Of a stretch of DNA of 64,000 nt, positions 24,672 to 41,615 are shown piece by piece. Position 1 is the stretch's first letter, and each line of letters opens with the position of its first letter. Source of the DNA: Lunularia cruciata (Eukaryota > Streptophyta > Marchantiopsida > Lunulariales > Lunulariaceae). The position numbers and the translations under genes were made by a program. The DNA is taken from assembly GCA_948567375.1 (NCBI GenBank), contig OX419762.1, forward strand, positions 54,702,841-54,766,840. The letters are read 5' to 3'. The notes under the pieces are model-generated. The model did not search any database. It saw nothing but the letters and a program-made list of their open reading frames with translations, and was not told the origin of the DNA.

Positions 24672-26557
24672 CCTTGTTGAAACCAAATTGAAACCAAATG
24701 GAGAAGAAATAAGTGAAAACCTGTGTTTTGATCAAGCTTGAGAAAGTTGATTTTTTATTGGAGGAAGAAGGACTTGGATTGGATCAAACCTAAAGAAGAT
24801 TACTTCGTATCAAAGGAGGAAGAAGAAGAAGAAGAAGAAGAAGGAGGTCAGACGCAGGAAGAGGGTACTTCACATTGGAATGAAGGTTACAGGTCAAGAT
24901 TATTGTGGAGGCTTTATCTCAATAAAGAAAGGTCCAAATCATGAGTGCTATATTTTGTTGGAAGCGTCCTGTCTAGGGCTTTTTGTTGCCACCAAAATCG
25001 CAAAGATTGGAGGTTTGTAGCAAAAGCTACAAGCATTTGAATTTTTGGGAGTAGATGTACAAAGTAGTTTAGTGTCTTCGGGTTGGTGTCTTTGGGTCTA
25101 TAAGACTTCAGACTTCAGACTTAAGACTTCAAGTTTACATGACTTTGGGTCTAAAGACTTTGCCTCAAGACAAATATGATTCAACCTGAGGTAGTCGGAC
25201 CTCGGAAGTGTAGTGAAGGTGACTTGAGGAATCTTACGAGAGGTATAAGAAGAAGTTAGAGTAAGGAAAGAAGATATTTACAATACCTATGACTTAAATT
25301 TCAGTTCTAATTGAAGATATGATAGAATTAGAAGAGAAATAGCACTAGTGAATGAACCCAAAGTGCAAGATCAAATAGTAAGTGTCTTTGGGTTAGTAAC
25401 ATGAGTGATTAGGGGAAAGTGGGTAGCAAATTGAATGCATAGATATTGTACCCATGCTTTCAATTACAATTCTTGATAAGGACATAGTAAATTTAGTAAA
25501 GGAATTGATGGTAGTTAGACCCAAAGTAAGAGATATAGGAGTGCAGGTTCTTTGGATTTGACATTTGATACTTTAGAGAAGAGTGGGTCAGGAGATAGAG
25601 ATTTAGAAGAAATAACTATGACAGGAATTGTAGATCAGAGTGAAGAAGTAGTAGAATTGGTCAAGGAATTAGTAGTTGTGAAACCCGAGGACAGAGTAGT
25701 AAGTGAAGTTACTTTGGGATTGGAAGCCGAGGAAGAAGTAGACATTGGATTGGAGTAGAAACAAATTTGAGATAAGAAGAGGCAGATATGAAGAGGTGCA
25801 TTGTCATTTTGGATCTGCAGGTAGGAAGAGTTGTTGTAGAACGATATAGTTGTTAGTAATTGTTGTTTGCTTCACTATATAAAGGAGGCATTCACAATCA
25901 TATGTTGTTCAATGCTCATAATTTCTAAGAATAGATAAAGCAAAGTGTTGTGAAGTAGAGCTCGTCATTTGAGCTTAATTTTGAGTATCAACATTGTGTG
26001 TGTGTTTAAGAGTGTTGGGAGAATTTCAAAGTGCAAGTCAGTGTGCTTGTTAGATGTTGGATTCCATAGCCTTGGTCTTCATTATGTGTGTTTGATCCTA
26101 AGTGAAGTGCAATCGGAGCAATGCCTTGATAGATCTGAGAGGAATTGTAGTGTTGGTAATATTCTGCATTTGTGAGTGCAGTGTATAGTTGATGTGAAGC
26201 AATTTTGATCAAGGAAGTTGTGCCTTCAATGGAGGGGTGGAAGACAATTTTGAGGTGAAGTCATTTTGCAATGAAGTGCCTTGTTTGGGAGAATGTGAAT
26301 CATCACAATCAAGATTTGTCTGGACATAAATTTGCTAAGTTGTGATTATGGTGTCTGAATTTGTGACAAGTTGTCAAGATTGTAAGCTTGTTACTCTCTA
26401 CAGGGTGTAGTTGCTACTTGAGAGATTAAAGAAGAAATCAAGAAGAACTACATGTTATTGTTTGACTTCCTATTTGGACATTTCTGACTAGTATCTTTGC
26501 GAGAACAAACTTTACTTACCTGATTAACGCAAAAGTGATATTTGCCGAGTTGTCACA
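24672..26557 (+). repeat. LTR1 copy P (short subfamily), 5' truncated
   Basis: The start (CCTTGTTGAAACCAAATTG) corresponds to base 48 of copy H at 53004, so the first 47 bases are missing. It lacks most of the coiled-coil ORF but keeps its C-terminal tail at 25552-25758 (TLEKSGSGDRDLEE to EVDIGLE and stop). It also has the TATA-like CTATATAAAG at 25874-25883 and the R/U5 end ...GAGTTGTCACA at 26557. A GAA microsatellite lies near 24820-24843. It interrupts the minus-strand LTR3, which resumes at 26558. Confidence 0.75.
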
Positions 26558-26669
26558 AATTTCCTCTCTTCTCTTACCTCTATTTTTGTCTAAGCCAGAC
26601 CACTTCAAAATTTCTGCCTTGTCTCTCTTTGTGCAGTCCAGATCTTCCCCTCAAGGGTTTGTCCAATCC
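26558..26669 (-). repeat. LTR3 (minus), segment 3
   Basis: A 112-base pyrimidine-rich piece (CTCTTCTCTTACCTC, CAAAATTTCTGCC) of the same character as segments 2 and 4. It is bounded by LTR1 P on the left and an LTR2 on the right. Confidence 0.5.
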
Positions 26670-27359
26670 TATAACACCCATTTGTGCATGTGTGTGGTAT
26701 TGTGATATTTAGCTTGGTATTACAAGTACTTGAGAGATATTATTTATATAGAAATAAAGGATAGTTCTATATTAGTCATGATTAGCTAAAGTTAGTCATA
26801 GCTAAGATAGAGGGGACCTTACTTTAGAGGAAGTGGAAAAGATAAGCACCACTATTTTGGATTCTAGTGTGTTGACTTGGTATTATTCCTAGGTGTTTGG
26901 CTTTGAGGAAAGAGTTGAAAACTCTTGGGCCCGCAAGCCTTTTTGTTTTGAATTCTTCTATAGTCCAAGGATAGCCCATGTGAAGGAATCCTTGACTTAG
27001 TGGTTGGGTCAAGATAAGATCACATGCTTAGAGGAATATGCCCATGTGAATGGATATTCCTTTCTACTTTTTGACTTTACTTGACTTTTATCCTAGTAAC
27101 TTGAGTAACTCTAGTAATTAGTAACTTTGGTATATAACTATTTCACAAGTATATAAACAAGGGGTGAGGAGGTACTCATCATCCTTTCATTTGCAATTAT
27201 CTCTCTCATTGAGTTCTTTGGTGAGCAATGCCTTGAGTCTTGGAGTGTTAGCCTTGGAGGATTATGATGGAGTTGGGGTTCCTTCCCTTCTTAGTCCATG
27301 GTGCAGTACCATAATAGCCATCTGAGGTTCATCTTGAGTGAGAGACAGGCCGGTTCATA
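26670..27359 (+). repeat. LTR2 solo LTR
   Basis: A 690-bp unit starting TATAACACCCATTTG and ending CCGGTTCATA, matching the 5' LTR at 48575-49261 throughout. The promoter region reads CAAGTATATAAACAAGG at about 27148-27162. No primer-binding site or internal sequence follows. GTCCA occurs just right of the unit and also on its left, four bases outside the apparent start, a possible target duplication. It lies inside the minus-strand LTR3. Confidence 0.8.
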
Positions 27360-27934
27360 GTCCAGACCTCACTTTGAGATTTCTTCCTGCTTGTACCTCT
27401 TGCACAAAACCTCCGTTTTCATTCCTATCCTTTTCTAGTTCAAAGACAAAACCTTCTTCCTCTCAAAACCTTCTCTCTCCTCACTATTTGTCTGTCCAAG
27501 CAGCAAGCTCCATCTCCTTCAAAAATCTCTCTCTCTATCTTGGCAGTCTCCAAATCCAAACCTTCTTTCTCTCAAAGCCTTCTCCTTTGTCTCTGCTAGG
27601 CCCCTACCTTTCTTCAAAACTCTCTCTCTCTTGATGCTTTTCTCCTTCCTTTCCTATCACAAAACCCCTATAGAGCTTTCTCTTGTCAAAACCCCTATTT
27701 CCTCACAAGAATTTTCTTGACCAGACCCTAATCCCCTTTGAGAGTTCCTCCTTTGACACTTCACACCCTTGTCACTCAAAATCCTCAATTCCTTATCTTC
27801 TGCACTCTCAAAAAGCCCTCCATGTCTCCCTTCCAATTTCTTCTTGTGTTTGTGAAAACCCTTCTTGTGAAAACCCTTCCTCACTTGACATTTTCCAAGA
27901 ATTCACCTCTACCAAGACCTTTGAAATCTCTCTT
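27360..27934 (-). repeat. LTR3 (minus), segment 4
   Basis: A pyrimidine-rich stretch with many TTCTCTCAAA-type repeats. It continues after LTR1 copy G at 41616 with the same composition. No gene is supported; the open frames on either strand are low-complexity. Confidence 0.5.
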
Positions 27935-29927
27935 TGTGACAACCTAGCAAATATCACTTTTGCGGTAATCACGTAAGTAAAGTTTGTTCCCATTGAGATA
28001 CGAGTCAGAAATGTCTAAATACAGAGTCAAACAATAACAATGTAGTTCTTCTTGAGTTCTTCTTTAATCTCTCAGGTAGAAACCACACCTAGAAGAGAGT
28101 AACAAGCACTGATTCACAATCTTGTCACAGATTAACACTCCTTAATCACAACACCTTCAATTCTTTCCAAACAATCATGATTGTGATGATTTGGGCTCTC
28201 CCAAAAATGGCACTTCATAGCAAAACAACTAAGCCTCAGAATTGTGTTCCACCCTTCCATTGAAGGCACAACTTCCTCGATCTAAATTGCTTCACATCAA
28301 CTTCGCATTGCACTCACAAATGCATAATACTACCAACACTACAATTCCTCTCAGATTTGTCAAGGCATTGCTTTGATTGCACTTCACTCAGGATCAAACA
28401 CACAGAGTAAAGATCAAGGTTGCGGAATCCAACATCCAACAAGCACACTGACTTGCACTTCAAATTTCTCCACACATTCACAAGCACAAACACAAAGTTG
28501 ATACTCCAAATCAAGCTCAAGCAATGAGCACTGCTTCATAGCACTTTGCTTTATCTATTCTCAAAAATTATGAGCACTGAACAACAATTTCATGCAAATG
28601 CCATTGTTAAATAGTGAAGCAAATGATAGTTCTAACAGAAATACTGTTTCCTAACAACTCTACAAACTTGCATATCCAAAATGACAATGCACCTATTCCT
28701 CTCTACCTCTTCCTATCTCAAATCTGTTACTAATCCGAACCGATGTCTACTTTATCATTGGCTTTCAAACCCAATCCCAAAGTAACTTCACTTCCTACTA
28801 CTCTTTCCTTGGGTTTCATAACTCCTACATCTTCTACCAAATCTAATAGTTCTCTTTCTTGATCTGAAATTTCACTAGTGGGCAATCTATCTAACTCCTT
28901 ATCTCCGGACCAACTCTTCTCTAATGTCTCCAATGGTAACTCCAAAGACATTTGTTCTCCTTTGTCTACTTTGGGTTTTGCTCTAACATCTTTCCGAAGT
29001 TTATCTATCTCTCATTTTACTAAGTCTAATCTGATTGTGATATTGTCTTCTACCTCTAATATCTTCCTATCTACACGAGTTCTGAGACTAATAAACAACG
29101 CGTTCAAATCGGTGTTCTTCACATGTCTCTTCCTTGTCTCTTGCACCAACAACTTCAACTTGTGCAACCTTGTCTCCTCAATACGCACACTGGCCTTTGT
29201 ACTCAACATTGCATTCATCCTAATTACAATTTCCTTCAATGGCTCTAGTCTCATCTTCCTTTCTCGCTCCTGATCTGCAAGCCAATCCTCTCGGTACATT
29301 GCCAATTTTGCTTCAAGCTTGGCTTTCACAACTTCCTTCTCCTTCTCCTTCTATACAATTTTGTCCTCCTGATTACAAAGTAACTCTCGCAATCTGTCTT
29401 CCTCTCTATATCTCACTGTCAACTCTCTTTGCCACAGTTGCTTCTTCTCTTCTACACTCTCAATCACCCTATTGAGCTCTTGTTCCTTCTCTACTACTCT
29501 TGCCATAGCATGAATAATTTCTAGTCTCGAATCAGCAAATTGCTGCTTCAAGATCTCATATTCAGCAATTTGTCTCTCCTTTGCTATGGCACTCTGCTTC
29601 ACAAGTTCCTCTCAATACCTTGCTTCTCTCCTCAAGTTTTCTACCACTTGACTCTACACTACTGCATCCACTTGTAGTACTTCCCTTTCCTCCTCACCTC
29701 GGATTATACTCTTCTTCAACTCCGAGTTCTCTTCTTCTAATTGTGCTAACACCTGCAATACAATCTTCACCTCCGGACACTTTAACTGCATCTCCTTCTT
29801 CTTGTGTTCCAATTTCACCAACAAAGGACACACAACTTCGCACAAGTACTCCACTCCGTCACTCGTGACTACTTCAACTTGCGGAGTGATCTCCTTCTTT
29901 ACCTCTTCTTCTCTCGGTACTTGCCTT
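27935..29927 (-). repeat. LTR1 copy G, left segment
   Basis: This is the 3' half of a minus-strand LTR1 ending TGTGACAACC (complement) at 27935. CTCTT at 27930-27934 matches CTCTT at 41616-41620 exactly. It is interrupted at 29928 by the methyltransferase retrotransposon and resumes at 39832, giving a total LTR length of about 3.77 kb, equal to copy F. Confidence 0.9.
28730..29854 (-). pseudogene. LTR1-borne ORF, copy G, coiled-coil half
   Basis: Three long minus-strand pieces (29654-29854, 29351-29602, 29012-29329) encode the coiled coil: VVCPLLVKLEHKKKEMQLK, then ILKQQFADSRLEIIHAMARV, then LADQERERKMRLEPLKEIV and KLLVQETRKRHVKNTDLNAL. The tail at 28730-28951 ends KVDIGSD and a stop. Charged heptad-like sequence with few Pro/Gly residues supports an extended coiled coil. 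Small frame breaks separate the pieces. The N-terminal half is at 40108-41136, on the far side of the inserted element. Confidence 0.75.
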
Positions 29928-30376
29928 TGTCACGCCATTTGTAGTTCCGCATCTAGATGCTCGGACATTGGAGTTCCAATGATGGTAGTTAGAGTTATTC
30001 TAGCTGTTTCTCAGGGACTACTTTCCGACGGTTAGATTTCATGTTTGGGGTACTGACTTCACGGTGGGGCCCACCGTCACTTTGCACCGTTTGCACCATC
30101 GAGTGTGCTGTCAGCGGGACCGTTAGGGTTTCAGGGCTAGCTCGAGTCCAGGGGGTATAGTTTTGAAGTGAGCTCTAGAGAGCTCACTTCTCTGATGTTG
30201 AGCCTTCGAGTTCCTGGCTATGGTGGACAGAGGCCGGCAAGCGTCACCTGGATTCTCTATGCTTGAGTGGGTGTGGCTTGACTGTAATCAGTGCCCAGTT
30301 GTTGGCAGTTTATAGAGTGACAGATCAAGTACTGATCTGAGTTGAGTTGAGTTGAGAGTGTTAAGCAATCTGATTA
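29928..30376 (+). repeat. Terminal repeat segment B, left copy
   Basis: This segment starts TGTCACGCCATTTG and ends GCAATCTGATTA. It matches 39276-39724 without gaps (constant offset 9348). It contains two hairpin-forming sequences: ACGGTGGG-G-CCCACCGT near 30060 and a 12-bp inverted repeat with a 2-base spacer at 30167-30192. The A segment, which precedes B at the right end, is absent here. Confidence 0.9.
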
Positions 30377-31666
30377 CATCAGAGAAGTGAAGTCAGGGGG
30401 AAATCGGGTGCAAGAACGTTGAGTGTTGGTGGTATCTCCAAGCTCGGTGGATCGTGGTAGCTCGATTCAGGTTCTGTGTTTCCCTAGTGTGCAGAAGCTC
30501 GTGTAGTTGATGCAAATTTGGCAGTTAGGCGGACGGTGTGCGGAAGCGTTGGCCAAATTTCGAGCAAAGAAGGAGCAATTTTCGAGCAGTGTTGTGATTT
30601 TGAGCTCAGGAGGTGAAGGCAAGACCAATTTGCTACGAGTTGGGCTCAGAAAGTGAAATTGAAGGTGGAGTTGGAAAGCTCTTCTCATGAAATTGTGATT
30701 TGGAAAAACCCGTTTTGTCAATTTGGCTCGAGTGGAAAGTTAGCGGGGGATTTGGCGGACATCCATCTTTAGGGTTTACGTCAGATTTTACGCCAGATTT
30801 ACATCAGATTCTGGGCCAGAATTGGAGGAGTTTCGCTGTTTGGCCAGATTTGGAGAAGTTTCGCTAGTTTGGAGGAGTTTCGTAGATTTGGAGAAGTTTC
30901 ACCAATTTTGGAGGAGGTTCGAAGTGGCAACAAGAAAGGCCTCATTTGGCTTTTAGAGGCTTCGAGGCATAGGGCTGTGGGCTATGAGAGGCTACGAAGG
31001 CCTAGAAGGGCCAGCAAGCCAGCTTGCTGGCGTGAGGCTAGCTAGTTTAGTGTAGATCTTGGTCATTGGTTGGCAAAATCTGCCTTTCTTGCTAGATTGT
31101 GCGCAACAGGGTTTGACCCCTAGATCTCTTGTTCATAGACTGGTGCCCTAGCCAACTGGTCCACCCTCACTTGTTGTCATAGTGACTGTGCCACTGTTAT
31201 CTATACACATGTAACTTTGGCTAGGAGAGGCAGTTTGATCCCATTCTTGGTGATCCTGGTAGCTTAGGACTTAGATACAAACTACTCTTATGTCAAATGC
31301 CAAATGGTGGCAGAGTCAGTCCCGTGTTATGTTATGAGATGGAGGGTTTTTGTTTAGATTTCTTGTGATTGGATCCCCTCCATTCTCTACTTCCTGTTTG
31401 TGCACCACGTTTGTGTGAGGTGCCTTGACTTTTGAGCGTTGGTGCTCTGGTGTGCTCTCGATGGTGAGGCTGGAGTGATGACCAGTCAGACTACCTTTGT
31501 TTCTCTTCGGTGAGGCAAGAAGTGATGACCTGCAGACCGTGAGAGTGCGTGTTATGATGGCAGGTTACAGGTTGCCTTCCCCTAGTGTAGTTATCTCGGT
31601 TAGAGTTACATTAGTGGGTGGTGTCTAGTTGGTGTTGGCACTTGGTGGGGCACTTGCAGTTGCGAC
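30377..31666 (+). other. 5' leader of the methyltransferase element
   Basis: About 1.3 kb without a convincing coding sequence. A TGGTATCTCCAAGCTC at about 30428 shares its first seven bases with the initiator-Met tRNA primer-binding site (TGGTATCAGAGC) and then diverges, so a primer-binding site is possible but unproven. A block of TTTGGAGAAGTTTCG-like repeats lies near 30820-30920. A tRNA-like stretch on the minus strand lies near 31100-31166. Confidence 0.6.
31100..31166 (-). other. tRNA-like sequence in the element's leader
   Basis: Read on the minus strand this stretch has an A-box-like TGGACCAGTTGGC (31151-31163) and a B-box-like AGGGGTCAAACCCT (31108-31121) at a tRNA-like distance. 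Between them lies CTATGAAC, resembling an anticodon loop. I could not fold a clean anticodon stem or acceptor stem, so it is more likely a tRNA-derived fragment or an internal pol III promoter relic than a functional tRNA. Confidence 0.4.
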
Positions 31667-32710
31667 TTGCGGTTGCAGTTGGTGGTTCGGGTTTGTTGTT
31701 GCAGCTACGTGGTCACGACGGAGTTCTTTGGAGATTCTAGAGGAGTTAGCCCTGCAATACGCAGTGGGTTTACTCGGAGTGGTGCTCGGTATCAGCCTGT
31801 ATCTCAGGTCCCAGTGAGGGAGGAGATTGACTCTGAGTTGGAGTTTGACACAGGAGTTGATTCAGTTGAGAGTGCACTTGGTGTGTCCGCACCGTTGTTG
31901 TGGGACATGGACGAGATTTATGGGGCCTCCAAAGGGCCTAGGCGTTACTCTGGTATAGTGGGTACTATTGAGTTGGATGATTTCATCCAGGAGTTCGATA
32001 GTTGGTGTGATCTGCAGCAAATGCGGAACCCGACTTTGTTCACACCCTTCATGGCATGGAAGGGGTTGTTTCAGCACTTGGAGGGTCCACCGATGGACGA
32101 CTACCATGAGTTCAAGAGAGCTCATTTGGAGGAGATTGAGTTATGGAGACAGTATTGGTCTCCTCAATATGTCTCCATCACTTCAGGCTCGGTGGCCAGG
32201 AGTAGATCGGCTGTACCTATGAGTTCTAGCTCGAGTAGTGTGGGTGGAGCTACTGGAGGTGCACTAGCTGGAGATAGTGCTACTACGAGTGGAGGTACCG
32301 CTGCAGGAGGTGGTGTGGTATCGGGGTTTAACCCCATGGTTGAGTTCTTCCTATGTTTGAGGCAGAACTACCAGGGAGTGCGGACTGACAAGCTGAGGAG
32401 CTTGCAGGAGTTCCAGCGGAAGGCTGGAGAGAGCCTACGCGAGGCATACACTCACATGAGGCGGCTGATCAGTTTCACTCAGGGAGTTACTGAGGCCCAG
32501 GCAGTCCAGTTTTGGTATGGGATACTGGACAGGGAGTTGCGACGTAGAATTTGTGATGCTACGTTGTTGCAGGCTACTTTGCCCACTTTGGCGGTAGTCT
32601 TTGGTTTGGCTGAGCGTATTGAGCTCAACATGGTGGAGGAGAGAGTGGTGACAGCTGGATTTGGTAGAGAGACCTCATCCACGGTTGTGACTTCTTCTAG
32701 AGTGCAGTAG
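31667..32710 (+). pseudogene. Gag of the methyltransferase element
   Basis: The frame is open from 31667 to the TAG at 32708-32710. The first in-frame ATG is at 31907 (MDEIYG); the original start may lie upstream and have decayed. After an acidic N-terminal part, a Ser/Gly-rich linker (about 32220-32320) leads to the gag core at 32335-32660. That core reads LRSLQEFQRKAGESLREAY, RRLISFTQGVTEAQAV and FGLAERIELNMVEER, typical of the capsid region of gypsy polyproteins. The same frame continues past three stops (32708, 32735, 32750) into the zinc knuckles at 32846, so Gag and Pol formed one long frame. Confidence 0.8.
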
Positions 32711-34593
32711 AGTGCACCACGCCCAGTTGGTTTTTGAGGACAGGGTGGATAGCCCAGATCCTATGGAGCGAGTGGAGGGCCTAGTGGAGTTAGACCCTTA
32801 CCCTCATTTTCGGGTCAGCAGCAGCCAGTGAGTGGTGGTGTTGCTTGTTGGACTTGTGGTGGACCTCACCATAGGAGAGAGTGTACTCAGGGCAGCGGAC
32901 CTGATACCTCTGGTGCATCACAGCCAGCACAGAGGCAGTGTGAGCACTGCCACAGATTTGGTCACACTAGTGACCGGTGTTTTGACCTACACCCGGAGTT
33001 ACGGAGTGGTAGGGCTGCTATGGCAGGTAGTAGAGGAGCTCCAGTTCATGGAGGACAAGGTGGTAGAGGTGGTGGTAGAGGATCTACACCTAGTAGGGGT
33101 GCAGTACCTGCCCTTACTTCTGACACAGCTATGGCTACTCGGATTGAGCAGTTGGAGCAGAGATTGGCTAGTATGGCTATTGCTCATAGGAGATCAGATT
33201 CAGGTGCTGAGGCTTCCACCTCATATGCTGGTGATAGAGATGCTTTGGACTTCATGTGCGGAGCAGCACAGGTGGATGCATCTGCAGCAGTGACTAGGAG
33301 TGCAGTACGTGCTCCAGAGCCTAGAGGAGCATCAGTGGAGTTGGACCCACAGAGAGGAGAGGTTGGGAGACAGGTCAGACTTCCCCAGTCTTTCACGCTA
33401 TCTGAGGCATTGCAGACAACATCCATGGTTCCTAGACGTCCCAATGCAGGTGTGGTAGGTGGTGATGGAGTACCTGCTAGTCAGCCACCTGCTACTACAC
33501 AGACTGAGTCTAGCATGATGTTGGGGGCGGCTCAGCTGATTATGCAGCATCCTTTATTTTCAGCCAGTGACATGTTTACATTGGGAGTTGACCCAGCCCC
33601 AGTGTTCCGGTTGGCTGCCACGTTGTGTGAGAGTAGGGATGGTGCAGTTCCTACTACTAGAGCAGAGGTGGTTGGTAGTGGAGCTGACTTGGTTGAGGAG
33701 CATGGGATCCGTTCAGCGACCAGTGGTTTATGGCTGGCAGCAGCGGCTAGACTGGAGGAGTTGCCAGCTAGACCGGCCTTTGAGAGAGCGCGGTTTACAC
33801 CTGGTGTTGTCCTATTGGATAACCAAAGGGGGATCTTTCGTTTGGTAGGACCTTCAGGGAAGGTCTATACACCACAGAGAGTCTTGTTAGACTCTGGTGC
33901 GCAGCCCCTTATGTTGGGGAAGGCTGCAGTTGTTGGTCTGGAGTTACAGAAGACCGATGTGGAGAGGTGTCCATTTCAGATCCAGACATCTCTTGGTGGT
34001 GGTTCGACACAGTACATCACACATGGAGAGCTTGTTGTCCAGGTTCAGCCTGGTCATCCGACTGATAGCTCGGTGGTGAGAGCTCAGGCTATTGCGACGA
34101 TAGCTGAGTCCTATGATGTGCTAGTTGGGGGAGCAGTGTTATACCCTATGGGTTTCAGTATTGACTATTGGGAGGAGACAACCTCTTATAGACCTGGTTG
34201 GCAGTCTGGTGAGGGACGGGTATGTCGCCTACCAATACGCTTTAGTAGTGGCAGTCTTGGCTCACTACAGTCCGGGACCATGGCAACATCAGTTTTGGCT
34301 TTCAGCGGTGCAGTTACTTGGCCTGGTGACTTGTTGGAGGGGAACGCCCATGCAGAGGATACTCCAGTACCAGAGGAGATCACTCGGCTATGGAGTACGA
34401 GTGGGATTGTTCCATCCACCTTGGATGTTCCATTGTGGAGTTCAGAGGAGGCATTGCAGCAGCATGCAGATCAGTTGGTGCAGCAGGCTTGGAGTGGAGC
34501 CTTCGTACCATCAGGGGATGAGTGTGAGGATGAGCCTCCAGAGGCGATTGCTTTGACACCTCTGGATACCACACTCATTGCTTGGCAGTACCC
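32711..34593 (+). pseudogene. Nucleocapsid knuckles and aspartic protease
   Basis: From 32828 the frame is open. Two zinc knuckles follow each other: CWTCGGPHHRREC at about 32846 (slightly irregular spacing) and CEHCHRFGHTSDRC at 32939-32980, a canonical CX2CX4HX4C. These bind the genomic RNA during packaging. A low-complexity Gly/Ser/Ala linker follows, then the aspartic protease with LLDSGAQPLMLG (DSGA codons at 33890-33901) and the later MGFSIDYWEE region. The protease would process the polyprotein. The frame continues without a stop into the methyltransferase, so the two were translated as one chain. Confidence 0.85.
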
Positions 34594-35590
34594 AGTAGAG
34601 GGGATATGTCTATTGGAGTTGTTTGGTGGGATCAGCACCGGACTAGCTGCGGTGTTACAGGCGGGTATCCGAGTACAGAGGTACTTGTATGTAGAGAGAG
34701 ATGAGACTGCTAGGCGAGTCTCTCTACATCATGTGGCACACTTGGCCTATCGGTATCCGGAGTTATTACCAATGTCAGCAGTCAGAGGTTACCAGAAGGC
34801 CTTACCAGGAGACATTTCCTTACTGGGGGCGCATGACCTAGAGAGACATGGGCCTATTCACTTGGTGATTTCTGGATGGCCATGTCAGGGACATACACAT
34901 GCGGGCCGCGGTTTGGGTCTTCAGGATCCTTGTTTTGGTGTGTTTTGGGAGATGTACGGATATTACGACATCTCCAGGTTCATCAGTCTGTTCCTCCAGC
35001 TTACCTTTTGGAGAACGTTCCATTGATGGGTGATTCTCGCACTAGAGTGGTGGCGAGTACACATCAGGTCCATTCTTGGATGGGACCTGCTGTATTGTTA
35101 GATGCAGCCAGAGTGGGATCACAGGCTTATCGTCTTCGTCTTTGGTGGACGAACCTTTTACCCAGAGAGGTTCTACAGCGTAGTTATGATGGGATTCAGC
35201 GACTAGACCACATTCTTGTTGATGATATCTTGGATGCTGGACGTCAGTCTCAGACAATGGTAGTGGCTGATAGGTCACCTATGGCAGTGGTGAACCTAGT
35301 TGGACAGCCTAGAGCTGCATTTCCCACACTCATGAGTTTCCCAAGCTCTCATGCTTTTCAAGAGGGAGGACCTGGACTTGTTTGGGACTCACAGTTACAG
35401 CAGTTGGTGGAGCCCAATGCTGATGAGAGAGAGCGGGCGATGGGTTTTCGCACCGGTATTACCGCTGTTCCAGCAGTGTCAGAGGCATCCAGGCGTCAGG
35501 TGTTAGGTCAGGCTATGGACCTGAACTATTTGACCTGGATTGTGAGCCTTGGTTTGGCAGAGCAGCGTAGGATGCGCTTGATAGGCATCA
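34594..35590 (+). pseudogene. Cytosine-5 DNA methyltransferase, DNMT3-like, within pol
   Basis: All main motifs occur in linear order. Motif I (AdoMet binding): LLELFGGISTGLAAVLQAGI at about 34609. Motif II: YVERDETARR. Motif IV: LVISGWPCQG, with the catalytic Cys codon at 34883-34885. Motif VI: LLENVPLMG, with ENV at 35011-35019. Motif VIII: YRLRLWWTNLL at about 35128. A target-recognition region with FPTLMSFPSSHAF. Motif IX: DERERAMGF at about 35430. Motif X: RRQVLGQAMDLNYLTW at about 35490. Motif I through X order and the end of the domain resemble DNMT3 rather than the permuted plant DRM type; PCQ resembles DNMT1/CMT. It would transfer methyl from AdoMet to cytosine C5. One single-base frameshift near 34955-34962 splits the domain; there is no premature stop inside it. 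It is fused in frame between protease and reverse transcriptase. About 330 residues is a full-length catalytic domain. Confidence 0.92.
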
Positions 35591-35886
35591 TCACTCGGAC
35601 ACTTGTGAGCCCTGTGCCTATCAAGACAATTCAGGCACATGCTGGGGGCGATGGACCGAGTGGACATGGTATTCTTGGGACACATCCAGTAGCTACTAGG
35701 GAGAGTGGTCTACTTGGAGTCCATCCAGGTGAGCATGGGCTACTTGGATTACACCCTTGGTCCACATGGGATGCAGCCAGAGGACGTATGGAGCTTGCAG
35801 CCAGAGTGGAGGGAGTTTTTCACACAGAGGTTGGGACCTCTAGTGGTCGGGAGCATGATACCATTGCTCCCAAGGGCCCAGTGTAG
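35591..35886 (+). pseudogene. Linker after the methyltransferase with GLLGxHP repeats
   Basis: A linker of about 100 codons joins the methyltransferase to the reverse transcriptase. It contains three degenerate copies of a seven-residue motif, GILGTHP, GLLGVHP and GLLGLHP, between about 35664 and 35757. The frame meets TAG at 35884-35886 and then continues open into the reverse transcriptase. I recognise no domain; it may be a spacer holding protease cleavage sites. Confidence 0.6.
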
Positions 35887-37380
35887 CAGCCAGTCAGTAC
35901 GTCTTCCACTCCTACTACAGTTTCAGAGGATACTTGGGAGCCAGATCTTGAACCCAAGCTTACTGGAGAGGAAAGACGGAGGGTTTGGAGGTTCTTGAGG
36001 AGTCACACAAGTTGTTTTGCCTTCAGTATGAAGGATTTGGGTGCTCTGAAGGGACCTGGTATACGGATTGAGCTGACTAGCGACACACCTATTTTCCGAC
36101 GTCCTTATCGATATAGTGAGATGGAGAGGACATTGATTCAGAGCCGGAGTAGTGACCTTTTTGAGGCTGGTTTGGTGGAGATTTCACATGGAGAGTATGC
36201 ATCAGCGATAGTGATGCCAGCCAAGAAGGATATGCATGGCAACTATACAGATAGGCGGATGTGTGGAGATTACCGTCCTATCAACCGACAGACCAGGGCT
36301 GATCGGTATGCCATGCCTACACCGGAGGAGATTTTTGATGCGATTGGGCATGCAAAGGTCTTCAGTACTTTGGATCTTTGAGCGGGATATCATCAGTTGC
36401 CGATCAAGGAGGAAGATAAGTCCAAGACAGCATTTTGGGCTATTGATCCTCACGGCAAGGATGTGTTATATCAGTGGAGGTTCTTACCATTTGGGTTGAA
36501 GAACGCTCCTGCTGAGTTCCAGAGGGTCATGGATAGGATCCTAGCTGGACTGGATTTTGCTCGGTGCTATATTGATGACATTTTGGTGTATAGCACTACT
36601 GTGGAGGAGCATGAGCGACACTTGTTGGAGGTGTTTGAGAGGTTGAGATCTCATGGACTCAAACTACATCTTGGGAAGTGTAGGTTCTTCCACGAGCAGG
36701 TTGAGTATTTGGGTCACACTATCTACCCCGGAGGACTTGGTGTCCAGCAGACCAAGGTGGAGGCTATTGCACGTATTCCTCGGCCTACGGATGTGAGCAG
36801 AGTGCGAGCATTCCTTGGGTTGGCGAACTTCTATCGCCGCTATGTTAGAGGATTTAGCGCCATTGCCAAGGCCTTGACAAAGCTGACCAAGCTTACACAG
36901 GAGTGGTGTTGGGGAGATGAGCAGGAGAGAGCTTTTGTAGAGCTCAAGGAGAGGTTGACATCTGCTCCTATTTTGAGGAGACCGATCAGGGGACGACCAT
37001 TTCAGGTTCACACTGATTGGAGTATGTTGGGGCTTGGAGCGGTGCTCACCCAGCATGATGATGAGGAGAAGGAGTTTGTGGTGGCCTATGCTAGTCGCTC
37101 CAACAATTCAGCGGAGGCAAAGTATAGTTCATATGAGGAAGAGTGCTTGGCAGCAGTTTGGGGAGTAGCACATTTCCGATGTTACCTATTTGGTAACCCC
37201 TTCACTCTCATCACTGATCATCAGCCGCTGAAGTGGTTGATGGAGTCCGACAAGCTTTCAGGGAAGCTTGCACGATGGGCTCTGATTTTACAGGAGTATG
37301 ATTTCACGGTTGTTCACAGACCTGGAGTGGTGAACCGTGATGCAGATGGGTTGAGTAGAAACCCATGTCCCAGCCAGCAG
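35887..37380 (+). pseudogene. Reverse transcriptase and RNase H
   Basis: The reverse transcriptase runs in the same frame as the second half of the methyltransferase. Visible motifs are MCGDYRPINRQT, FSTLDL followed by a TGA at 36379-36381 and then AGYHQL, LPFGLKNAPAEFQRVMD, and the catalytic CYIDDILVY (YIDD codons 36568-36579). VEYLGHTI and FLGLANFYRRYV follow. RNase H follows with VHTDWSMLGLGAVL, EECLAAVWGVAHFRCYL and TDHQPLKWL. These copy the genomic RNA into DNA and remove the RNA strand. A typical residue at the TGA is Arg (CGA). Family length is normal. Confidence 0.93.
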
Positions 37381-38837
37381 GATCAGACCGGAGCACGTTG
37401 GCATGGTGAGACAGATGAGGAGATGGTGCCAGGTTGGCATGCATCGGCCTTTCTGTGTATATTTGCAGAGACTTTGGTGGTATCTCTCTCAGCGCATACA
37501 GGAGGAGTTATTGAGGTCACAGATCCAGAGAGTGAAGATATTGGTACAATTCAGCGAGACATTCATGATGATGTCTTAGTGATGGACTATCTTTGCACTG
37601 GTGTTGTGGGTGGCACAATTGGGGCCAAGGAGAGAGACCGTGTTCTTCAGCGAGCCAGACGGTTCAGATTGGAGGGTAGACACCTTTTGCGTGTATGGGA
37701 GGATGGTAGAGTGCGAGTAGTACCACTTCCATCACAGAGACCACAGTTGGTCCGTCATGCTCATGAGGAGCTAGGACATTTTGGAGTAAAGCGTACATAT
37801 AGCTTACTCCAGAGTCATTATTGGTGGCGCGGTATGCAGACCGAGGTATAGCAGTTTGTTGCCAGATGTGTGGTTTGTGACCGAGTTAGAGCATCATTCA
37901 ATGCTCCTACGCCACAATTACACCCATTACCTATCATGGGATTGGGTTACCGTTGGAGTTTGGACTTTGCTGGACCTTTACCGCTGACTGTGAGACATCA
38001 TCGGTATGTTTTGGTGATGGTGGAGCACTTCTCCAAGTGGATTGAGTTGGTGGCACTTCCTGACAAGTCTAGTGAAGGGACAGCTTACTCGTTCCTGGAT
38101 CGAGTTCTTAGTCATTTTGGTGCACCAGCTGAGGTTTTGACTGATCAGGGTACAGAGTTCTTGGAGAGTTTCAGGTCTTATGTGACAAGGCTTTGATTGA
38201 TCATCGTACTACATCCTGAGATCACCCTGAGGCAGATGGCTTAGCAGAGAGAGTGGTTCAGACGGTGAAGAGAGGATTGCGAAAGTATGGTTTGCAGAGA
38301 GGCCACTTGGGAGATTGGGATCTCCAGTTACCTTGGTTGGCCATGGGCTATCGGTTCAGCCGGCAAGCCTCCTTAGCATCCTTCTCTCCATACTTTCTAC
38401 TCTATGGACGAGATCTAGATTTACCTGCAGCCATTCGTCAAGATGCTACTGTAGTTTTGGACTTGGATGACCCCGATGTATGGATGAGCGCATGTTCTCA
38501 GCGGGCAGAGATCTTTCGGAGAGTGATGCCGATGGCCTTTGAGAACTTGGCGATTGCTCAGCATAGAGATACTTTACGCTATGCTACCATTCAAGGAGGA
38601 GGTTATAGACCCTCGATCCGTCGATTTCATCCCGGCGACTATGTATATCTACAGCAAACAGCACCGACGACACTTGATGTTTCTACAGGCCGCACTATCT
38701 TGAGAGTGCGCGAGGTTTTGCCATCTGGAGTCCTTGTGTTAGAAGGACGTGATGGTGTTATTTGGAAGGATCATGTGCGCAATTGTGCGCCATGCCACCT
38801 CCCAAACATTGATGGTACTATGGACCCAAGCTTGGCA
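37381..38837 (+). pseudogene. Integrase with C-terminal domain
   Basis: A zinc-binding HHCC region is present: RHAHEELGHFGVKR near 37750, then CVVCD at 37867-37881, separated by a TAG at 37849-37851. The DDE core has WSLDFAGPLPL, VLTDQGTEF and ADGLAERVVQ. A frameshift falls near 38180 and a TGA at 38217-38219 follows, inside the core. The C-terminal domain contains FHPGDYVYLQ and GRTILRVREVLPSG, the SH3-like fold of gypsy integrases. There is no chromodomain; a PHD finger follows. Integrase would insert the cDNA; the CCTT duplication is its expected trace. Confidence 0.9.
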
Positions 38838-38999
38838 CTTGTACGTGCAGGCTTGAGGTGTATGTTATTTGGCTCTTCTGGTGGAGCTGCTACTATGTTA
38901 GTGTGTGATAGCTGTTCGAGAGGATGGCATATGGCATGTATGACTCCTCCCCTCACGGTGGTTCCTCAGGGACAGTGGCTATGTCCTAGATGTACTTGA
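38838..38999 (+). pseudogene. PHD-type zinc finger at the integrase C-terminus
   Basis: The last 50 or so residues read RCMLFGSSGGAATMLVCDSC, then SRGWHMACMTPPL, then GQWLCPRCT and the stop at 38997-38999. The spacing CDSC-x4-H-x2-C-x15-CPRC, with Trp before His and the WxC pattern, is that of a PHD finger. The first zinc ligand pair is incomplete: only one Cys is seen where C-x2-C is expected. PHD fingers bind histone tails, often H3K4, so here it may direct integration to particular chromatin. This domain has no stop or frameshift of its own. Confidence 0.8.
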
Positions 39000-39168
39000 C
39001 CTATAGCTAGTTCATTCTTTATATGGTATAGATTGCAGACAGGCGACTAATGATGGGGCTCCATAGCACCCGGCCTCCTGATCTTTGCCCATTAGAGGGT
39101 ATACCATATACTTAGAGTAGATGGCTATCTGGAGTTAGAGGGACCTAACCGCCAGCTAGGGGGGCGAT
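39000..39168 (+). promoter_or_regulatory. 3' untranslated region and polypurine tract
   Basis: The 3' untranslated region ends in AGGGGGGCGAT (39158-39168), a polypurine tract directly before TGTGGCAC at 39169. In a normal element the 3' LTR starts right after this tract, so by this criterion the LTR begins with segment A and not with segment B. Confidence 0.75.
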
Positions 39169-39273
39169 TGTGGCACTTTAGAGTCTATGTATGACTTATG
39201 TGTGAGTTGTGCTTTTATAGTGTATGATGTTGACAGCGATGTATGTTGTGTAGCGATGTATATACGCACGACA
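39169..39273 (+). repeat. Terminal repeat segment A, first copy
   Basis: A 105-bp segment from TGTGGCACTTTAGAG to TATACGCACGACA, identical by eye to 39727-39831. It contains a TATA-like CTTTTATAGTG. It is followed by GC and then by segment B. Confidence 0.9.
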
Positions 39274-39275
39274 GC

Positions 39276-39724
39276 TATCACGCCATTTGTAGTTCCGCAT
39301 CTAGATGCTCGGACACTGGAGTTCCAGTGATGGTAGTTAGAGTTATTCTAGCTGTTTCTCAGGGACTACTTTCCGACGGTTAGATTTCATGTTTGGGGTA
39401 CTGACTTCACGGTGGGGCCCACCGTCACTTTGCACCGTTTGCACCGTCGAGTGTGCCATCAGCGGGACCGTTAGGGTTTCAGGGCTAGCTCGAGTCCAGG
39501 GGGTATAGTTTCGAAGTGAGCTCTAGAGAGCTCACTTCTCTGATGTTGAGCCTTCGAGTTCCTGGCTATGGTGGACAGAGGCCGGCGAGCGTCACCTGGA
39601 TTCTCTATGCTTGAGTGGGTGTGGCTTGACTGTAATCAGTGCCCAGTTGTTGGCAGTTTATAGAGTGACAGATCAAGTACTGATCTGAGTTGAGTTGAGT
39701 TGAGAGTGTTAAGCAATCTGATTA
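39276..39724 (+). repeat. Terminal repeat segment B, right copy
   Basis: Gap-free match to 29928-30376 with about eight transitions. It begins TATCACGCC, against TGTCACGCC at the left end. It is followed by AT and then by the second segment A. Confidence 0.9.
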
Positions 39725-39726
39725 AT

Positions 39727-39831
39727 TGTGGCACTTTAGAGTCTATGTATGACTTATGTGTGAGTTGTGCTTTTATAGTGTATGATGTTGACAGCGATGT
39801 ATGTTGTGTAGCGATGTATATACGCACGACA
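39727..39831 (+). repeat. Terminal repeat segment A, second copy
   Basis: Identical to 39169-39273 and likewise preceded by AT. It forms the right end of the element (GCACGACA), followed directly by the CCTT duplication and LTR1 copy G. Confidence 0.9.
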
Positions 39832-41615
39832 CCTTCTTCGCTGCAGTCTTCATATTGGAATGGACGCTTCACTCCCCAAACTGGCATTCTCCTCTTCCCT
39901 TACCTTGCTCGGACCCATGTCACACTTTGCCTTTTGCCTAGACCAAACTCCTCTTTAATTGGTAACCTTCTTCTCCTCTTGCTCTGGCACTTCGTCTTCT
40001 ATCTTCATGTTACCTTCCTCCTCAAGCTCAATCCTGACTTCTTCTTCTGTTGTGGGAATCAATGTCATCTCCCCGCCTTCATTGTTGTTACTACTCGTGT
40101 CTCCACTCTATAGTGTGAGCTCGGGTTCTTCCTTGCATTCTGAGTCTTTGGACTTACACTCGGCTTCGCCTTTCGAGTCTTTTTCTGATGATGCGATTAC
40201 CACCATACCTTTCCTCACGTTTACTCTTCTGGTCTTCCGAGGTCTCATTCTCTTGACATCTTCACCTTCTCCTTGTTGACTCCTCTTCTTCAACTTCAGA
40301 GTACTTACATCCACCTGTGCACTCTTCCCTGTCTGCGCGTAGTACTCATTGCTGCTTCTGATCTGAAGAATGAACTGCTGCTTCTCTATGTTGACCTCCT
40401 TTCTTAAGTCGGGATAAAAATACAACACCATTTTGTTGTGCTCCACTGTAATGAGCAGATTCAGCCCCAGGTAGAAATGTGCTTCAAATGACACAATGTA
40501 ATGTGGAGGTGATTTATCTCGCAAGTTCCACACCATCTGTCTCGTTTGCCCATAGAAGCACCTCGCCCAGTTAATTGGCTCTCCTGCAAACATCTTATGG
40601 AAGAACACCGCTTGGTGCTTCATCACATAAGTCGTTCTCTCCGGCTTTAGGATTGCCATGAGAGCACTCATGATCCTCCTCTTGACCGGATCCTTGTAAC
40701 TCTCTACTTTGTACCCATTCTTCGTACGCTTTGAAGAGAATGCATCCCTCACTTCTTGGGTTTCTTTGGCTACCTCTCCCTTCCCCAAGAACGTGGCACC
40801 CTGGTCCATGCCTGCCTCTCTTCTGAGTACTAATCTCCAATCCAACTCCGTCTAGCAAGCCGGATTTCCTCTCTTCCCCTCTTCCTCAAGGCGATCGAGA
40901 CATTAACTCTTGATTATCTCGATCATGAATCTTGGAAAACTCAAATTCCAGTTCCACGCCAAGAATGTGATCCGAAGTCGGCTCAAGACTTTGATTCTTG
41001 CAATCACATCTAACCTCTGAATCGCATGATTTCTCACTATGAATCTTGGAGTTCTTCTTTCCTCCTCCCATCTTTCTTTCTTCCTCACTGTCTCTTGGAT
41101 TAGCTCTCTTGAATTCTCCTCTACACACCAGTGCATCTTTTACTTCCCTTCCCACAATCTCCTGCAGGACAACTCCTCAACGGCAAAGGAAAATTGCTTG
41201 ACATTGCTTTGTTAGCCCAATTTTTATAGAGTCGCGCCTTCTTTGTTGCTCTTCAATTTGAGTTTCTACCAAGAAATCACACTTCTTGCATGCTCTTGTC
41301 ACTGTCAAGTGTCCTTCATGCGTATGACCGCCGGTTTTTGAATGGTCCCTTCTTGAATTTCTCACCCCGAAGAAAAGTTGTTACATTGTCCTCACCTCGG
41401 GTTGAGCACCCCCCCAATACAAAGACTTCTTACTTTGGGTTGTTTGCTGACAGGGCAAGTCCGAGTACTTTGCCTTATGACCCAAAGCCACGTTACCTCG
41501 GGTTTCATCCTGAAGGCTCTTTTCTTCACCTTCTTCAGCCATACAGGCGCAATCCAACTTCTCTATACACTTCTTCTTCTTCATTTCAAAAAAAGCAAAA
41601 AATGTGGGTACCACA
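39832..41615 (-). repeat. LTR1 copy G, right segment
   Basis: This is the 5' half of copy G on the minus strand, ending at 41615 with the complement of TGTGGTACCCACATTTTTTG and followed by the CTCTT duplication. It contains the N-terminal half of the LTR1 frame and the leader (about 41180-41615). Confidence 0.9.
40108..41136 (-). pseudogene. LTR1-borne ORF, copy G, N-terminal half
   Basis: The best preserved N-terminal part in the window. 40903-41136 encodes HWCVEENSRELIQETVRKK to ITFLAWNWNLSFPRFM. 40108-40845 is open for 245 codons and encodes the conserved domain (LVLRREAGMDQGATFLGKGE, KNGYKVESYKDPVKRR, KHQAVFFHKMFAGEPINWA, PPHYIVSFEAHFYLGLNLL) and then a Lys/Arg- and Glu-rich linker. The same residues recur in copies A, B, D, F, J and N, while other positions vary. 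That pattern suggests past protein-level constraint. I do not recognise the fold. Confidence 0.75.

What the first reader, a model, noticed from the sequence alone, without database searches (positions are those of the whole stretch)
34594..35590. A Ty3/gypsy retrotransposon carries a complete DNMT3-like cytosine-5 DNA methyltransferase
Seen: motifs I, II, IV (PCQ), VI (ENV), VIII, IX and X occur in linear order inside one pol chain. Known: such enzymes methylate DNA cytosines; methyltransferase-bearing retrotransposons were reported in dinoflagellates and a charophyte alga (de Mendoza and colleagues 2018, from memory). Inference: the element methylated DNA on arrival, perhaps its own cDNA or its target, which could hide it, tame it to the host's benefit, or silence competitors. 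The linear motif order separates it from plant DRM enzymes; PCQ and the DNMT3-like end make its origin an open question.
Basis: partly seen in the sequence, partly recalled or inferred. Interest (0 to 1): 0.95.

Follow-up and report, generated by a model that had tools for sequence, protein, structure and literature searches.

The report
Retrotransposon family carrying a DNA methyltransferase
A many-copy jumping element in a plant genome, probably a liverwort, carries its own DNMT3-like DNA-methylating enzyme, appears to make it together with its coat protein, and inserts with an odd rearranged repeat layout, so it may methylate its own DNA before inserting.

Summary
The domain is real and belongs to an element family, not to a chance insertion. 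The window holds one Ty3/Gypsy-type insertion (29928-39831) with a perfect 4-bp target duplication, encoding Gag, zinc knuckles, protease, a DNMT3-type cytosine methyltransferase (34589-35574), RT, RNase H, DDE integrase and a PHD finger. This copy is dead: a frameshift splits the methyltransferase and there are further stops. Of 59 copies scored in the same genome (window included), 21 have the domain open full-length, with signs of purifying selection in shared variants. Relatives occur in Marchantia, Calypogeia, Sphagnum, Closterium and unnamed metagenomes. Sequence and predicted fold both point to DNMT3. Two further points seem new. (1) The enzyme lies upstream of an in-frame UAG-CARYYA stop (58 of 58 copies with that region, plus a divergent relative), so it should be made at Gag levels while RT and integrase need readthrough. 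(2) The repeats are split as in DIRS elements (A1...B1-GC-A2-B2), yet 17 of 18 copies with both ends read have 4-bp duplications beside TGTC...GACA ends. That suggests a circle opened by the integrase at the palindrome GACAGCTGTC. The closest published element is KnitGypsy-Dnmt3 of Klebsormidium.

The parts
29924..29927 (.). left target-site duplication CCTT
   Evidence: equal to 39832-39835; three other copies of the host repeat in the window align without gaps through the joined flanks
29928..30375 (+). repeat A1, begins TGTC
   Evidence: 438 of 446 compared positions identical to A2; same start in genomic copies
31604..32707 (+). gag frame
   Evidence: continuous with PR-MT in P0001 and, across the circular join, in L081; here interrupted by stops at 32708, 32735, 32750
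32753..34588 (+). zinc knuckles (CCHC) and aspartic protease region
   Evidence: homology to P0001, 54% identity over 96% of the 757-aa frame; PR and CCHC located in relatives
34589..34954 (+). methyltransferase, N-terminal part: motifs I to IV (LFGG, WPCQ)
   Evidence: blastp to P0002, 74% over 122 aa
34930..35574 (+). methyltransferase, C-terminal part in another frame: motifs VI (ENV), VIII (decayed), X
   Evidence: blastp to P0002, 63% over 241 aa, running on to 35649; motif table
35884..35886 (+). in-frame TAG followed by CAGCCA: proposed readthrough stop between Gag-PR-MT and RT-RH-INT-PHD
   Evidence: same frame on both sides; same place and UAG-CARYYA context in L081 and in 58 of 58 copies with the region, window included
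35887..37299 (+). reverse transcriptase and RNase H (stop at 36379)
   Evidence: Pfam RVT_1 2.6e-26, RT_RNaseH 1.2e-36
37729..38181 (+). integrase: H2C2 zinc domain and DDE core (stop at 37849)
   Evidence: Pfam Integrase_H2C2 7.9e-12, rve 4.7e-12
38220..38996 (+). integrase C-terminal part and PHD finger (38883-38993), another frame
   Evidence: Pfam PHD 5.5e-10; in L081 and in 8 of 8 listed relatives that run past the integrase
39157..39166 (+). polypurine tract TAGGGGGGCG, directly before repeat B1
   Evidence: 113 nt from TAGGGGGG to the palindrome here and in L081
39167..39273 (+). repeat B1, ends GACA
   Evidence: 106 of 106 compared positions identical to B2
39270..39279 (+). junction GACA-GC-TATC joining B1 to A2, one base from the palindrome GACAGCTGTC
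   Evidence: GACAGCTGTC in L081 and in 10 of 16 fetched copies
39276..39724 (+). repeat A2
39725..39831 (+). repeat B2, ends GACA; right end of the element
39832..39835 (.). right target-site duplication CCTT

Best explanation
Shown: a Ty3/Gypsy-type retrotransposon family, about 9.9 kb, whose first frame is Gag-zinc knuckle-protease-DNMT3-type methyltransferase and whose second, in frame after a UAG, is RT-RNase H-integrase-PHD. Shown: copies end in TGTC...GACA, have 4-bp target duplications and carry split direct repeats A1...B1-GC-A2-B2. Inferred: UAG-CARYYA is a programmed readthrough stop, so every translated genome yields methyltransferase along with Gag and only a minority yields RT and integrase; many enzyme molecules enter each particle. 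Inferred: cDNA becomes a circle in which B and A meet at the palindrome GACAGCTGTC; the integrase nicks both strands after CA, leaving GC overhangs, and joins the opened circle to the target. Inferred, weakest: the enzyme methylates the new DNA de novo in the particle or before integration, so that it arrives marked like host chromatin, and the PHD finger (perhaps reading H3 tails, as the ADD domain does for host DNMT3) guides integration.
For: Homologs: 41 and 67 proteins in two searches. DNMT3 kinship: PDB profile search, AlphaFold model with 30 of 34 ten-residue blocks of the domain at pLDDT 80 or more, the 50 Foldseek rows listed all DNMT3 chains (TM up to 0.84 by target length, about 0.34 by the longer query). 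Catalytic Cys present in 51 of 52 full-length relatives (the other has a gap), motif VI Glu in 52 of 52. Domain open in 21 of 59 copies; pN/pS 0.70 for singletons against 0.28 for variants shared by 3 or more copies (Fisher p 0.02; open copies only, 0.77 against 0.15, p 0.003). Stop context: window TAG CAGCCA, L081 TAG CAATCA, while 60 nt on either side match, ungapped, at only 19 and 20 of 60; CARYYA stands at 14 of 4376 in-frame positions. Of 33 tree rows labelled PR-MT, 27 end 54-141 aa after the domain. Termini: 15 of 16 copies, L176 and the window have perfect 4-bp duplications: 17 of 18. Junction: best match of the window's 16-mer in L081 noncoding DNA is 15 of 16; 0 of 500 shuffles reach 15. 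Empty site shown.
Against: No enzyme activity was tested; the K. nitens element's isolated domain gave no methylation in yeast, which its authors call inconclusive (PMC5890265 section 10). The genomic copies are recent and related, so the stop context rests on two divergent elements. The stop is not universal: nine listed proteins outside the RT-RH-MT form run from MT into RT, RNase H or integrase (P0012, P0015, P0027, P0031, P0066, P0070, P0073, P0079, P0085), though six of them are named gene models in which an intron may skip it. Folding downstream of the stop gives no shared structure (z +1.1 window, -4.0 L081). One stop inside the domain, a transversion, is shared by three copies, and one frameshift by two neighbouring copies, so copies with a broken enzyme may have multiplied, perhaps helped in trans. 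No circle was seen directly: L081's circular contig can be an assembly effect of repeats. A linear intermediate made in an unknown way is not excluded. No classical TGG primer-binding site was seen after A1 (by eye only).
Confidence: 0.55

Rival explanations
1. The methyltransferase acts on host chromatin or on competing elements rather than on the element's own DNA, silencing insertion sites or rivals.
For: A PHD finger fused behind the integrase could bring the enzyme to chromatin; DNMT3 kin act on chromatin.
Against: It is encoded with Gag and protease, which points to particles rather than free nuclear protein.
Confidence: 0.2
2. The domain is kept for a non-DNA role: RNA methylation, or nucleic-acid binding as a Gag helper.
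For: Gag-frame position; lack of activity of the K. nitens domain in yeast.
Against: Catalytic residues of motifs IV, VI and VIII are nearly invariant over 52 relatives; closest kin are DNA enzymes.
Confidence: 0.15
3. The UAG is an ordinary terminator and RT-integrase is expressed some other way, for example by reinitiation or a spliced RNA.
For: No shared downstream structure; only two divergent elements bear on the context; gene models of relatives that pass the stop site.
Against: Same frame on both sides and UAG-CARYYA in both divergent elements, although the flanking bases do not match.
Confidence: 0.15
4. The split repeats are a secondary rearrangement of a normal LTR element, or an assembly error.
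For: Ordinary Gypsy elements have full LTRs at both ends (recalled).
Against: Same layout and clean 4-bp duplications at separate places on six contigs, an empty site, same junction and spacing in L081.
Confidence: 0.05
5. A one-off chance insertion of a methyltransferase into one element copy.
For: None found.
Against: 59 of 59 scored copies carry the domain at least in part (a sample biased by the query), and so do relatives in several plant lineages.
Confidence: 0.01

Closest known systems
KnitGypsy-Dnmt3 of Klebsormidium nitens (de Mendoza et al. 2018, PMC5890265)
   Same: Gypsy domains, unrearranged Dnmt3-type domain, intronless, purifying selection, and repeats that the Fig. 4 legend calls the same as in DIRS elements (section 9 read)
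   Different: Different host lineage. What I read (sections 9, 10, 11, 15 and a term search of the main text) mentions no PHD finger, no readthrough and no Marchantia. Figures and supplements were not seen. Sequences could not be compared: no named K. nitens sequence came up here.
SymbioDIRS-Dnmt3 and SymbioLINE-Dnmt (dinoflagellates, same paper)
   Same: retrotransposon-borne cytosine methyltransferase; the DIRS ones methylate CG de novo in yeast
   Different: different element classes, described as unrelated acquisitions
DIRS/PAT-type tyrosine recombinase elements
   Same: split direct repeats A1...B1-A2-B2 (layout recalled)
   Different: DDE integrase (Pfam rve), no tyrosine recombinase hit, 4-bp target duplications
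DNMT3A/3B methyltransferase domain
   Same: linear motif order, closest sequence and fold match
   Different: PCQ in place of PCN in motif IV, no ADD or PWWP domain found, embedded in a Gag-protease polyprotein
Chromoviruses (Gypsy with a chromodomain behind the integrase; recalled)
   Same: chromatin-reader-like module at the end of Pol
   Different: PHD finger rather than chromodomain; methyltransferase present

Membership tests
KnitGypsy-Dnmt3-like elements | Gypsy-type RT, RNase H and integrase | tested here: met
   Pfam hits
KnitGypsy-Dnmt3-like elements | unrearranged Dnmt3-type methyltransferase in the coding region | tested here: met
KnitGypsy-Dnmt3-like elements | DIRS-like split repeats | tested here: met
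KnitGypsy-Dnmt3-like elements | purifying selection on the methyltransferase | tested here: met
   pN/pS 0.28 for variants shared by 3 or more copies against 0.70 for singletons (p 0.02); with variants seen twice added, p 0.08
KnitGypsy-Dnmt3-like elements | sequence clade with the K. nitens copies | not tested
   no named K. nitens sequence came up
DNMT3 methyltransferases | closest match DNMT3 among DNMT classes, linear motif order | tested here: met
   no phylogeny with DNMT1, CMT, DRM and DNMT5 was run
DNMT3 methyltransferases | DNA methylation activity | not testable with these tools
   no assay
DRM methyltransferases | rearranged motif order | tested here: not met
   motif order I, IV, VI, VIII, X; DRM chains match only the motif I-IV stretch
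DIRS order | tyrosine recombinase | tested here: not met
   Pfam found rve and no recombinase in the seven frames scanned
DIRS order | split direct repeats | tested here: met
Ty3/Gypsy LTR elements | full-length LTRs at both ends | tested here: not met
   the left end carries A only; 16 of 20 fetched copies show B1, A2 and B2 at the right
Ty3/Gypsy LTR elements | DDE integrase with a short target duplication and TG...CA ends | tested here: met
   4 bp in 17 of 18 copies with both ends read
UAG-CARYYA readthrough class | UAG followed by CARYYA, same frame downstream | tested here: met
   the consensus is recalled, not looked up
UAG-CARYYA readthrough class | readthrough product | not testable with these tools
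   no assay

The most novel reading that the evidence does not exclude
A DDE-integrase retrotransposon family that integrates from a circle, opened by its integrase at a 10-bp palindrome, with a DIRS-like repeat cycle; and it packs a de novo DNA methyltransferase at Gag stoichiometry (upstream of a readthrough stop) so that the circle is methylated before insertion. In a sister branch the same enzyme sits between RNase H and integrase, so its dose relative to Gag was changed in evolution.
Probability: 0.4. Interest if true: 0.9.

Novelty: new variant of a known kind. Interest (0 to 1): 0.74.

Why it matters
Cytosine methylation is a main way that plants silence transposons, so an element that carries its own de novo methyltransferase turns the usual arms race around. 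Here the family has many copies, some with the domain intact, in a plant genome (probably a liverwort), and relatives in Marchantia, where genetics is easy, so the 2018 question (what is the enzyme for?) becomes testable. The placement with Gag predicts dose and location. The split-repeat layout with clean 4-bp duplications gives a concrete way to ask whether a DDE integrase can use a circular substrate.

Tried and rejected
One-off insertion: rejected. DRM origin: rejected on motif order. Bacterial or viral donor: the 80 viral loci kept of 109 match at 22-48% identity, and 79 of the 80 prokaryote-collection loci kept of 86 at 21-42%, mostly over part of the domain; the exception, L081, is an element copy binned into a cyanobacterial MAG. 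No donor was sought beyond that. A shared-frameshift subfamily: suspected; each domain frameshift is private except one shared by L173 and L175, which lie about 70 kb apart on one contig. Nine of the ten split copies have their indel near the window's own, probably because the query ran past it and favoured such copies. Shared stops: ten codon positions carry a stop in two or more of 48 copies; most are C-to-T or G-to-A changes in different sets of copies, which I read as repeated deamination, but one is a transversion shared by three copies (L188, L241, L256) and looks inherited. Palindrome 16-mer in viral contigs: 8 matches, about what chance gives by my rough estimate, none with a hit to L081's proteins. 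Conserved structure after the stop: none. tRNA gene scan: none. Host name: not found; liverwort is an inference from the tree (window rows in a starred set of 13 with Marchantia, Calypogeia and unnamed rows).

Not done: a tree with DNMT1, CMT, DRM and DNMT5; expression; methylation data; a genome-wide copy count (one search scored 59 of 20385 first-look candidates; the pattern count never ran).

Full report
OBSERVATION. Stop-to-stop frames on the + strand between 31604 and 38999 carry an LTR-retrotransposon coding region. Pfam finds RVT_1 (2.6e-26), RNase H (1.2e-36), the integrase zinc domain (7.9e-12), rve (4.7e-12) and a PHD finger (5.5e-10), but nothing on the two frames that hold the methyltransferase. 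A protein search with the 757-aa frame finds 41 homologs, best Marchantia polymorpha at 54% identity over 96%, many with PF00145 precomputed. Against the intact relative P0002, the window's domain splits into 34589-34954 (74% over 122 aa) and 34930-35649 (63% over 241 aa, which runs about 75 nt past the domain end at 35574) in two frames. Intact copies of the domain exist in the same genome.

WHAT THE DOMAIN IS. Of 86 proteins, 52 gave a full-length single-stretch domain and were used; 34 partial or split ones, or ones without the domain, were left out. Among the 52 the motif IV cysteine is present in 51 (the other row has a gap) and the motif VI glutamate in 52. phmmer of P0001 against the PDB gives DNMT3A first (1.7e-8); a profile of eight domains gives DNMT3A 3.9e-25, DRM 6.4e-15, HhaI 2.1e-10. 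DRM chains match only the motif I-IV stretch, as expected if DRM is rearranged and this is not. An AlphaFold model of Calypogeia P0018 (mean pLDDT 65.4 overall; 30 of 34 ten-residue blocks of the domain at 80 or more) has only DNMT3 chains among the 50 Foldseek rows listed, the best with TM about 0.8 by target length and 0.34 by query length, the query being much longer than the domain. Best reading: a DNMT3-type enzyme. No tree with all DNMT classes was run.

THE FAMILY. A second search, with the domain alone, adds Closterium sp. NIES-54 and many unnamed metagenome proteins (67 hits). Domain order in relatives comes in two forms: CCHC-protease-MT, then RT (window, liverworts, mosses, Closterium), and RT-RNase H-MT-integrase-PHD (P0068 and others). 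In the MT tree (quick method, 54 rows) the second form is one clade (11 rows, 97*; two of them, P0067 and P0075, show no other domain). In a small RT tree (11 rows, window in two pieces) the family stands apart from two other Gypsy elements of the same window (100/100), with P0068 and P0077 of the second form together (99/99). One capture followed by one relocation within the polyprotein is the simplest reading; the roots are not firm. A PHD finger ends 8 of the 8 listed proteins that run past the integrase. The window's rows fall with Marchantia and Calypogeia (99*, 13 rows), which suggests a liverwort host; the genome (565.8 Mb, 74 contigs) is unnamed.

COPIES IN THE SAME GENOME. The genome search scored 59 copies, the window's own included, out of 20385 first-look candidates: a lower bound, and a sample drawn towards the query, which held part of the domain. 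Nine of the 59 list an open frame of at least 1400 aa with no stop inside the match. The methyltransferase is open full-length in 21 of 59; 28 have in-frame stops and ten are split by indels. In the 48 ungapped rows (11 dropped, and 6 codon variants with more than one change set aside), singletons have pN/pS 0.70 (75 N, 35 S), variants shared by three or more copies 0.28 (19 N, 22 S) (Fisher p 0.02; with variants seen twice added, p 0.08). Among open copies uncorrected dN/dS is 0.39 over 210 pairs. 74-87% of changes are C-to-T or G-to-A, as expected from deamination of methylated cytosine (inference). Against a strict need for the enzyme: stops at ten codon positions occur in two or more copies. 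Most fall in different sets of copies at CAG, CGA or TGG codons and look recurrent, but one transversion stop is shared by three copies, and L173 and L175 share a frameshift, so broken copies may have multiplied with help in trans or by local duplication. On balance the source copies seem to have been selected for a working enzyme, while individual insertions decay.

THE STOP. L081, a 9285-nt contig filed in a cyanobacterial MAG but plainly an element of this family (MT 49% identical to P0001; 50% to the window's C-terminal half), has one open frame Gag-CCHC-PR-MT (continuous across the circular join), then TAG, then in the same frame RT-RNase H-integrase-PHD. The stop contexts are TAG CAA TCA (L081) and TAG CAG CCA (window): both fit UAG-CAR-YYA, the tobacco-mosaic-virus-type readthrough signal (recalled; the paper searches timed out). 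The 60 nt before and after match, ungapped, at only 19 and 20 of 60. CARYYA occurs at 14 of 4376 in-frame positions of the two elements, and none of the window's seven other listed stops has it, though the one at 37849 is one base off. It is present in 58 of the 58 copies in which the region could be read, window included (57, L249; L178 lacks the region). Of 33 tree rows labelled PR-MT, 27 end 54-141 aa after the domain; some of these ends may be contig ends or gene-model ends. Against: nine listed proteins outside the second form run from MT into RT, RNase H or integrase, six of them named gene models; and no shared RNA structure follows the stop. If readthrough operates, the enzyme is made in Gag amounts and RT and integrase in much smaller amounts.

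THE REPEATS. The element runs from TGTC at 29928 to GACA at 39831, flanked by CCTT on both sides; three other copies of the interrupted host repeat align without gaps over 299-300 nt through the joined flanks (72-89% identity). Repeat A (about 447 nt) stands at the left end alone; the right end reads B1-GC-A2-B2. A1/A2 differ at 8 of 446 positions, all transitions; B1/B2 are identical over 106. Of 20 further copies fetched at both ends, 16 show B1, A2 and B2 (B2 of L174 lacks its first 42 nt). 16 had both boundaries read, 15 of them with a perfect 4-bp duplication; L172 has three of four bases. L176, whose right part is deleted, also has a perfect one; with the window that is 17 of 18. Not counted: L178 and L182 (right end not found, also with longer stretches) and L188 (left end not found). 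The joint between B1 and A2 reads GACAGCTGTC in 10 of 16; the other six differ from it by one to two bases but keep GC. L180 is A-internal-B with a perfect duplication and no second A: either a one-repeat circle product or a later B1 x B2 recombination. The A2|B2 junction is the same in 15 of 16 fetched copies; L174 has a deletion and the window one extra base. A1/A2 mismatches range from 1 to 25 of about 440 over 15 copies, so insertions differ in age; no rate was applied.

MECHANISM. The polypurine tract lies before B1, not before the TG end, and the tract-to-palindrome distance is 113 nt in both the window and L081. Reverse transcription should therefore define B-GC-A as the repeat unit, and A2|B2 joins the two ends that such a cDNA would have. 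The integrated ends lie inside that unit, at GACA|GC|TGTC. The simplest path is a two-unit circle cut once at the palindrome: cleavage after CA on both strands leaves GC overhangs at both ends, as in normal 3' processing (recalled), and joining to a 4-bp staggered target gives the observed insertion. A DIRS-type bridged circle gives the same product. L081 assembled as a circle (127-nt identical ends), but repeats alone can cause that. Circle detection is the missing step.

FUNCTION. Inferred: the enzyme is packed with Gag and methylates the element's own DNA before or at insertion. The 2018 authors proposed cDNA self-methylation for the dinoflagellate DIRS elements (section 11) and showed de novo CG methylation by those, not by the Klebsormidium one (section 10). 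What is added here: position in the Gag frame, a many-copy, partly intact family in another host, two positions of the enzyme, a recurring PHD finger, and the 4-bp duplications.

LITERATURE. PMC5890265: outline, sections 9, 10, 11, 15 and term passages. PMC12344493, PMC6453930, PMC5784723, PMC9516144, PMC11244446: passages only. PMC12344493 says only that some DNMT3 members are embedded in retrotransposons, as reported in streptophytes and dinoflagellates. The four answered searches listed no paper whose title or shown abstract describes bryophyte methyltransferase-Gypsy elements, their readthrough stop or their target duplications; the other searches timed out, so novelty is provisional.

Noticed in passing
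L081 (CADCWO010000201.1, 1-9285): A contig filed in a Synechococcales cyanobacterium MAG (AVDCRST_MAG81) is a retrotransposon of this family, perhaps from a soil-crust alga; its ends overlap by 127 identical nt.
   Followed up: yes
window 54254-55888 and 58189-59217: Two other Gypsy elements, in frames with no methyltransferase seen, closely related to each other; used as outgroup.
   Followed up: partly
window 2054-2353, 5591-5889, 21306-21605 and the element's flanks: A host repeat encoding a coiled-coil-like frame recurs at least four times in the window; the element landed in one copy.
   Followed up: partly
window 26001-28488: Large inverted repeat: arms of 316, 107 and 68 nt, 85-90% complementary.
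   Followed up: no
L270: An older element copy (72-87% identity in the matched pieces) on the other strand keeps the B-A-B order, which hints at long use of this layout.
   Followed up: no
P0068, P0070: Motif IV reads WECQ instead of WPCQ in a few relatives (E in 5 of 52 rows), catalytic Cys kept.
   Followed up: no
window 38883-38993: The window's PHD finger seems to have lost one zinc-binding cysteine that L081 and relatives have.
   Followed up: no
L173 and L175 (G000 contig C10, about 26.65 and 26.72 Mb): Two copies about 70 kb apart share the same methyltransferase frameshift: local duplication, or spread of a broken copy.
   Followed up: no
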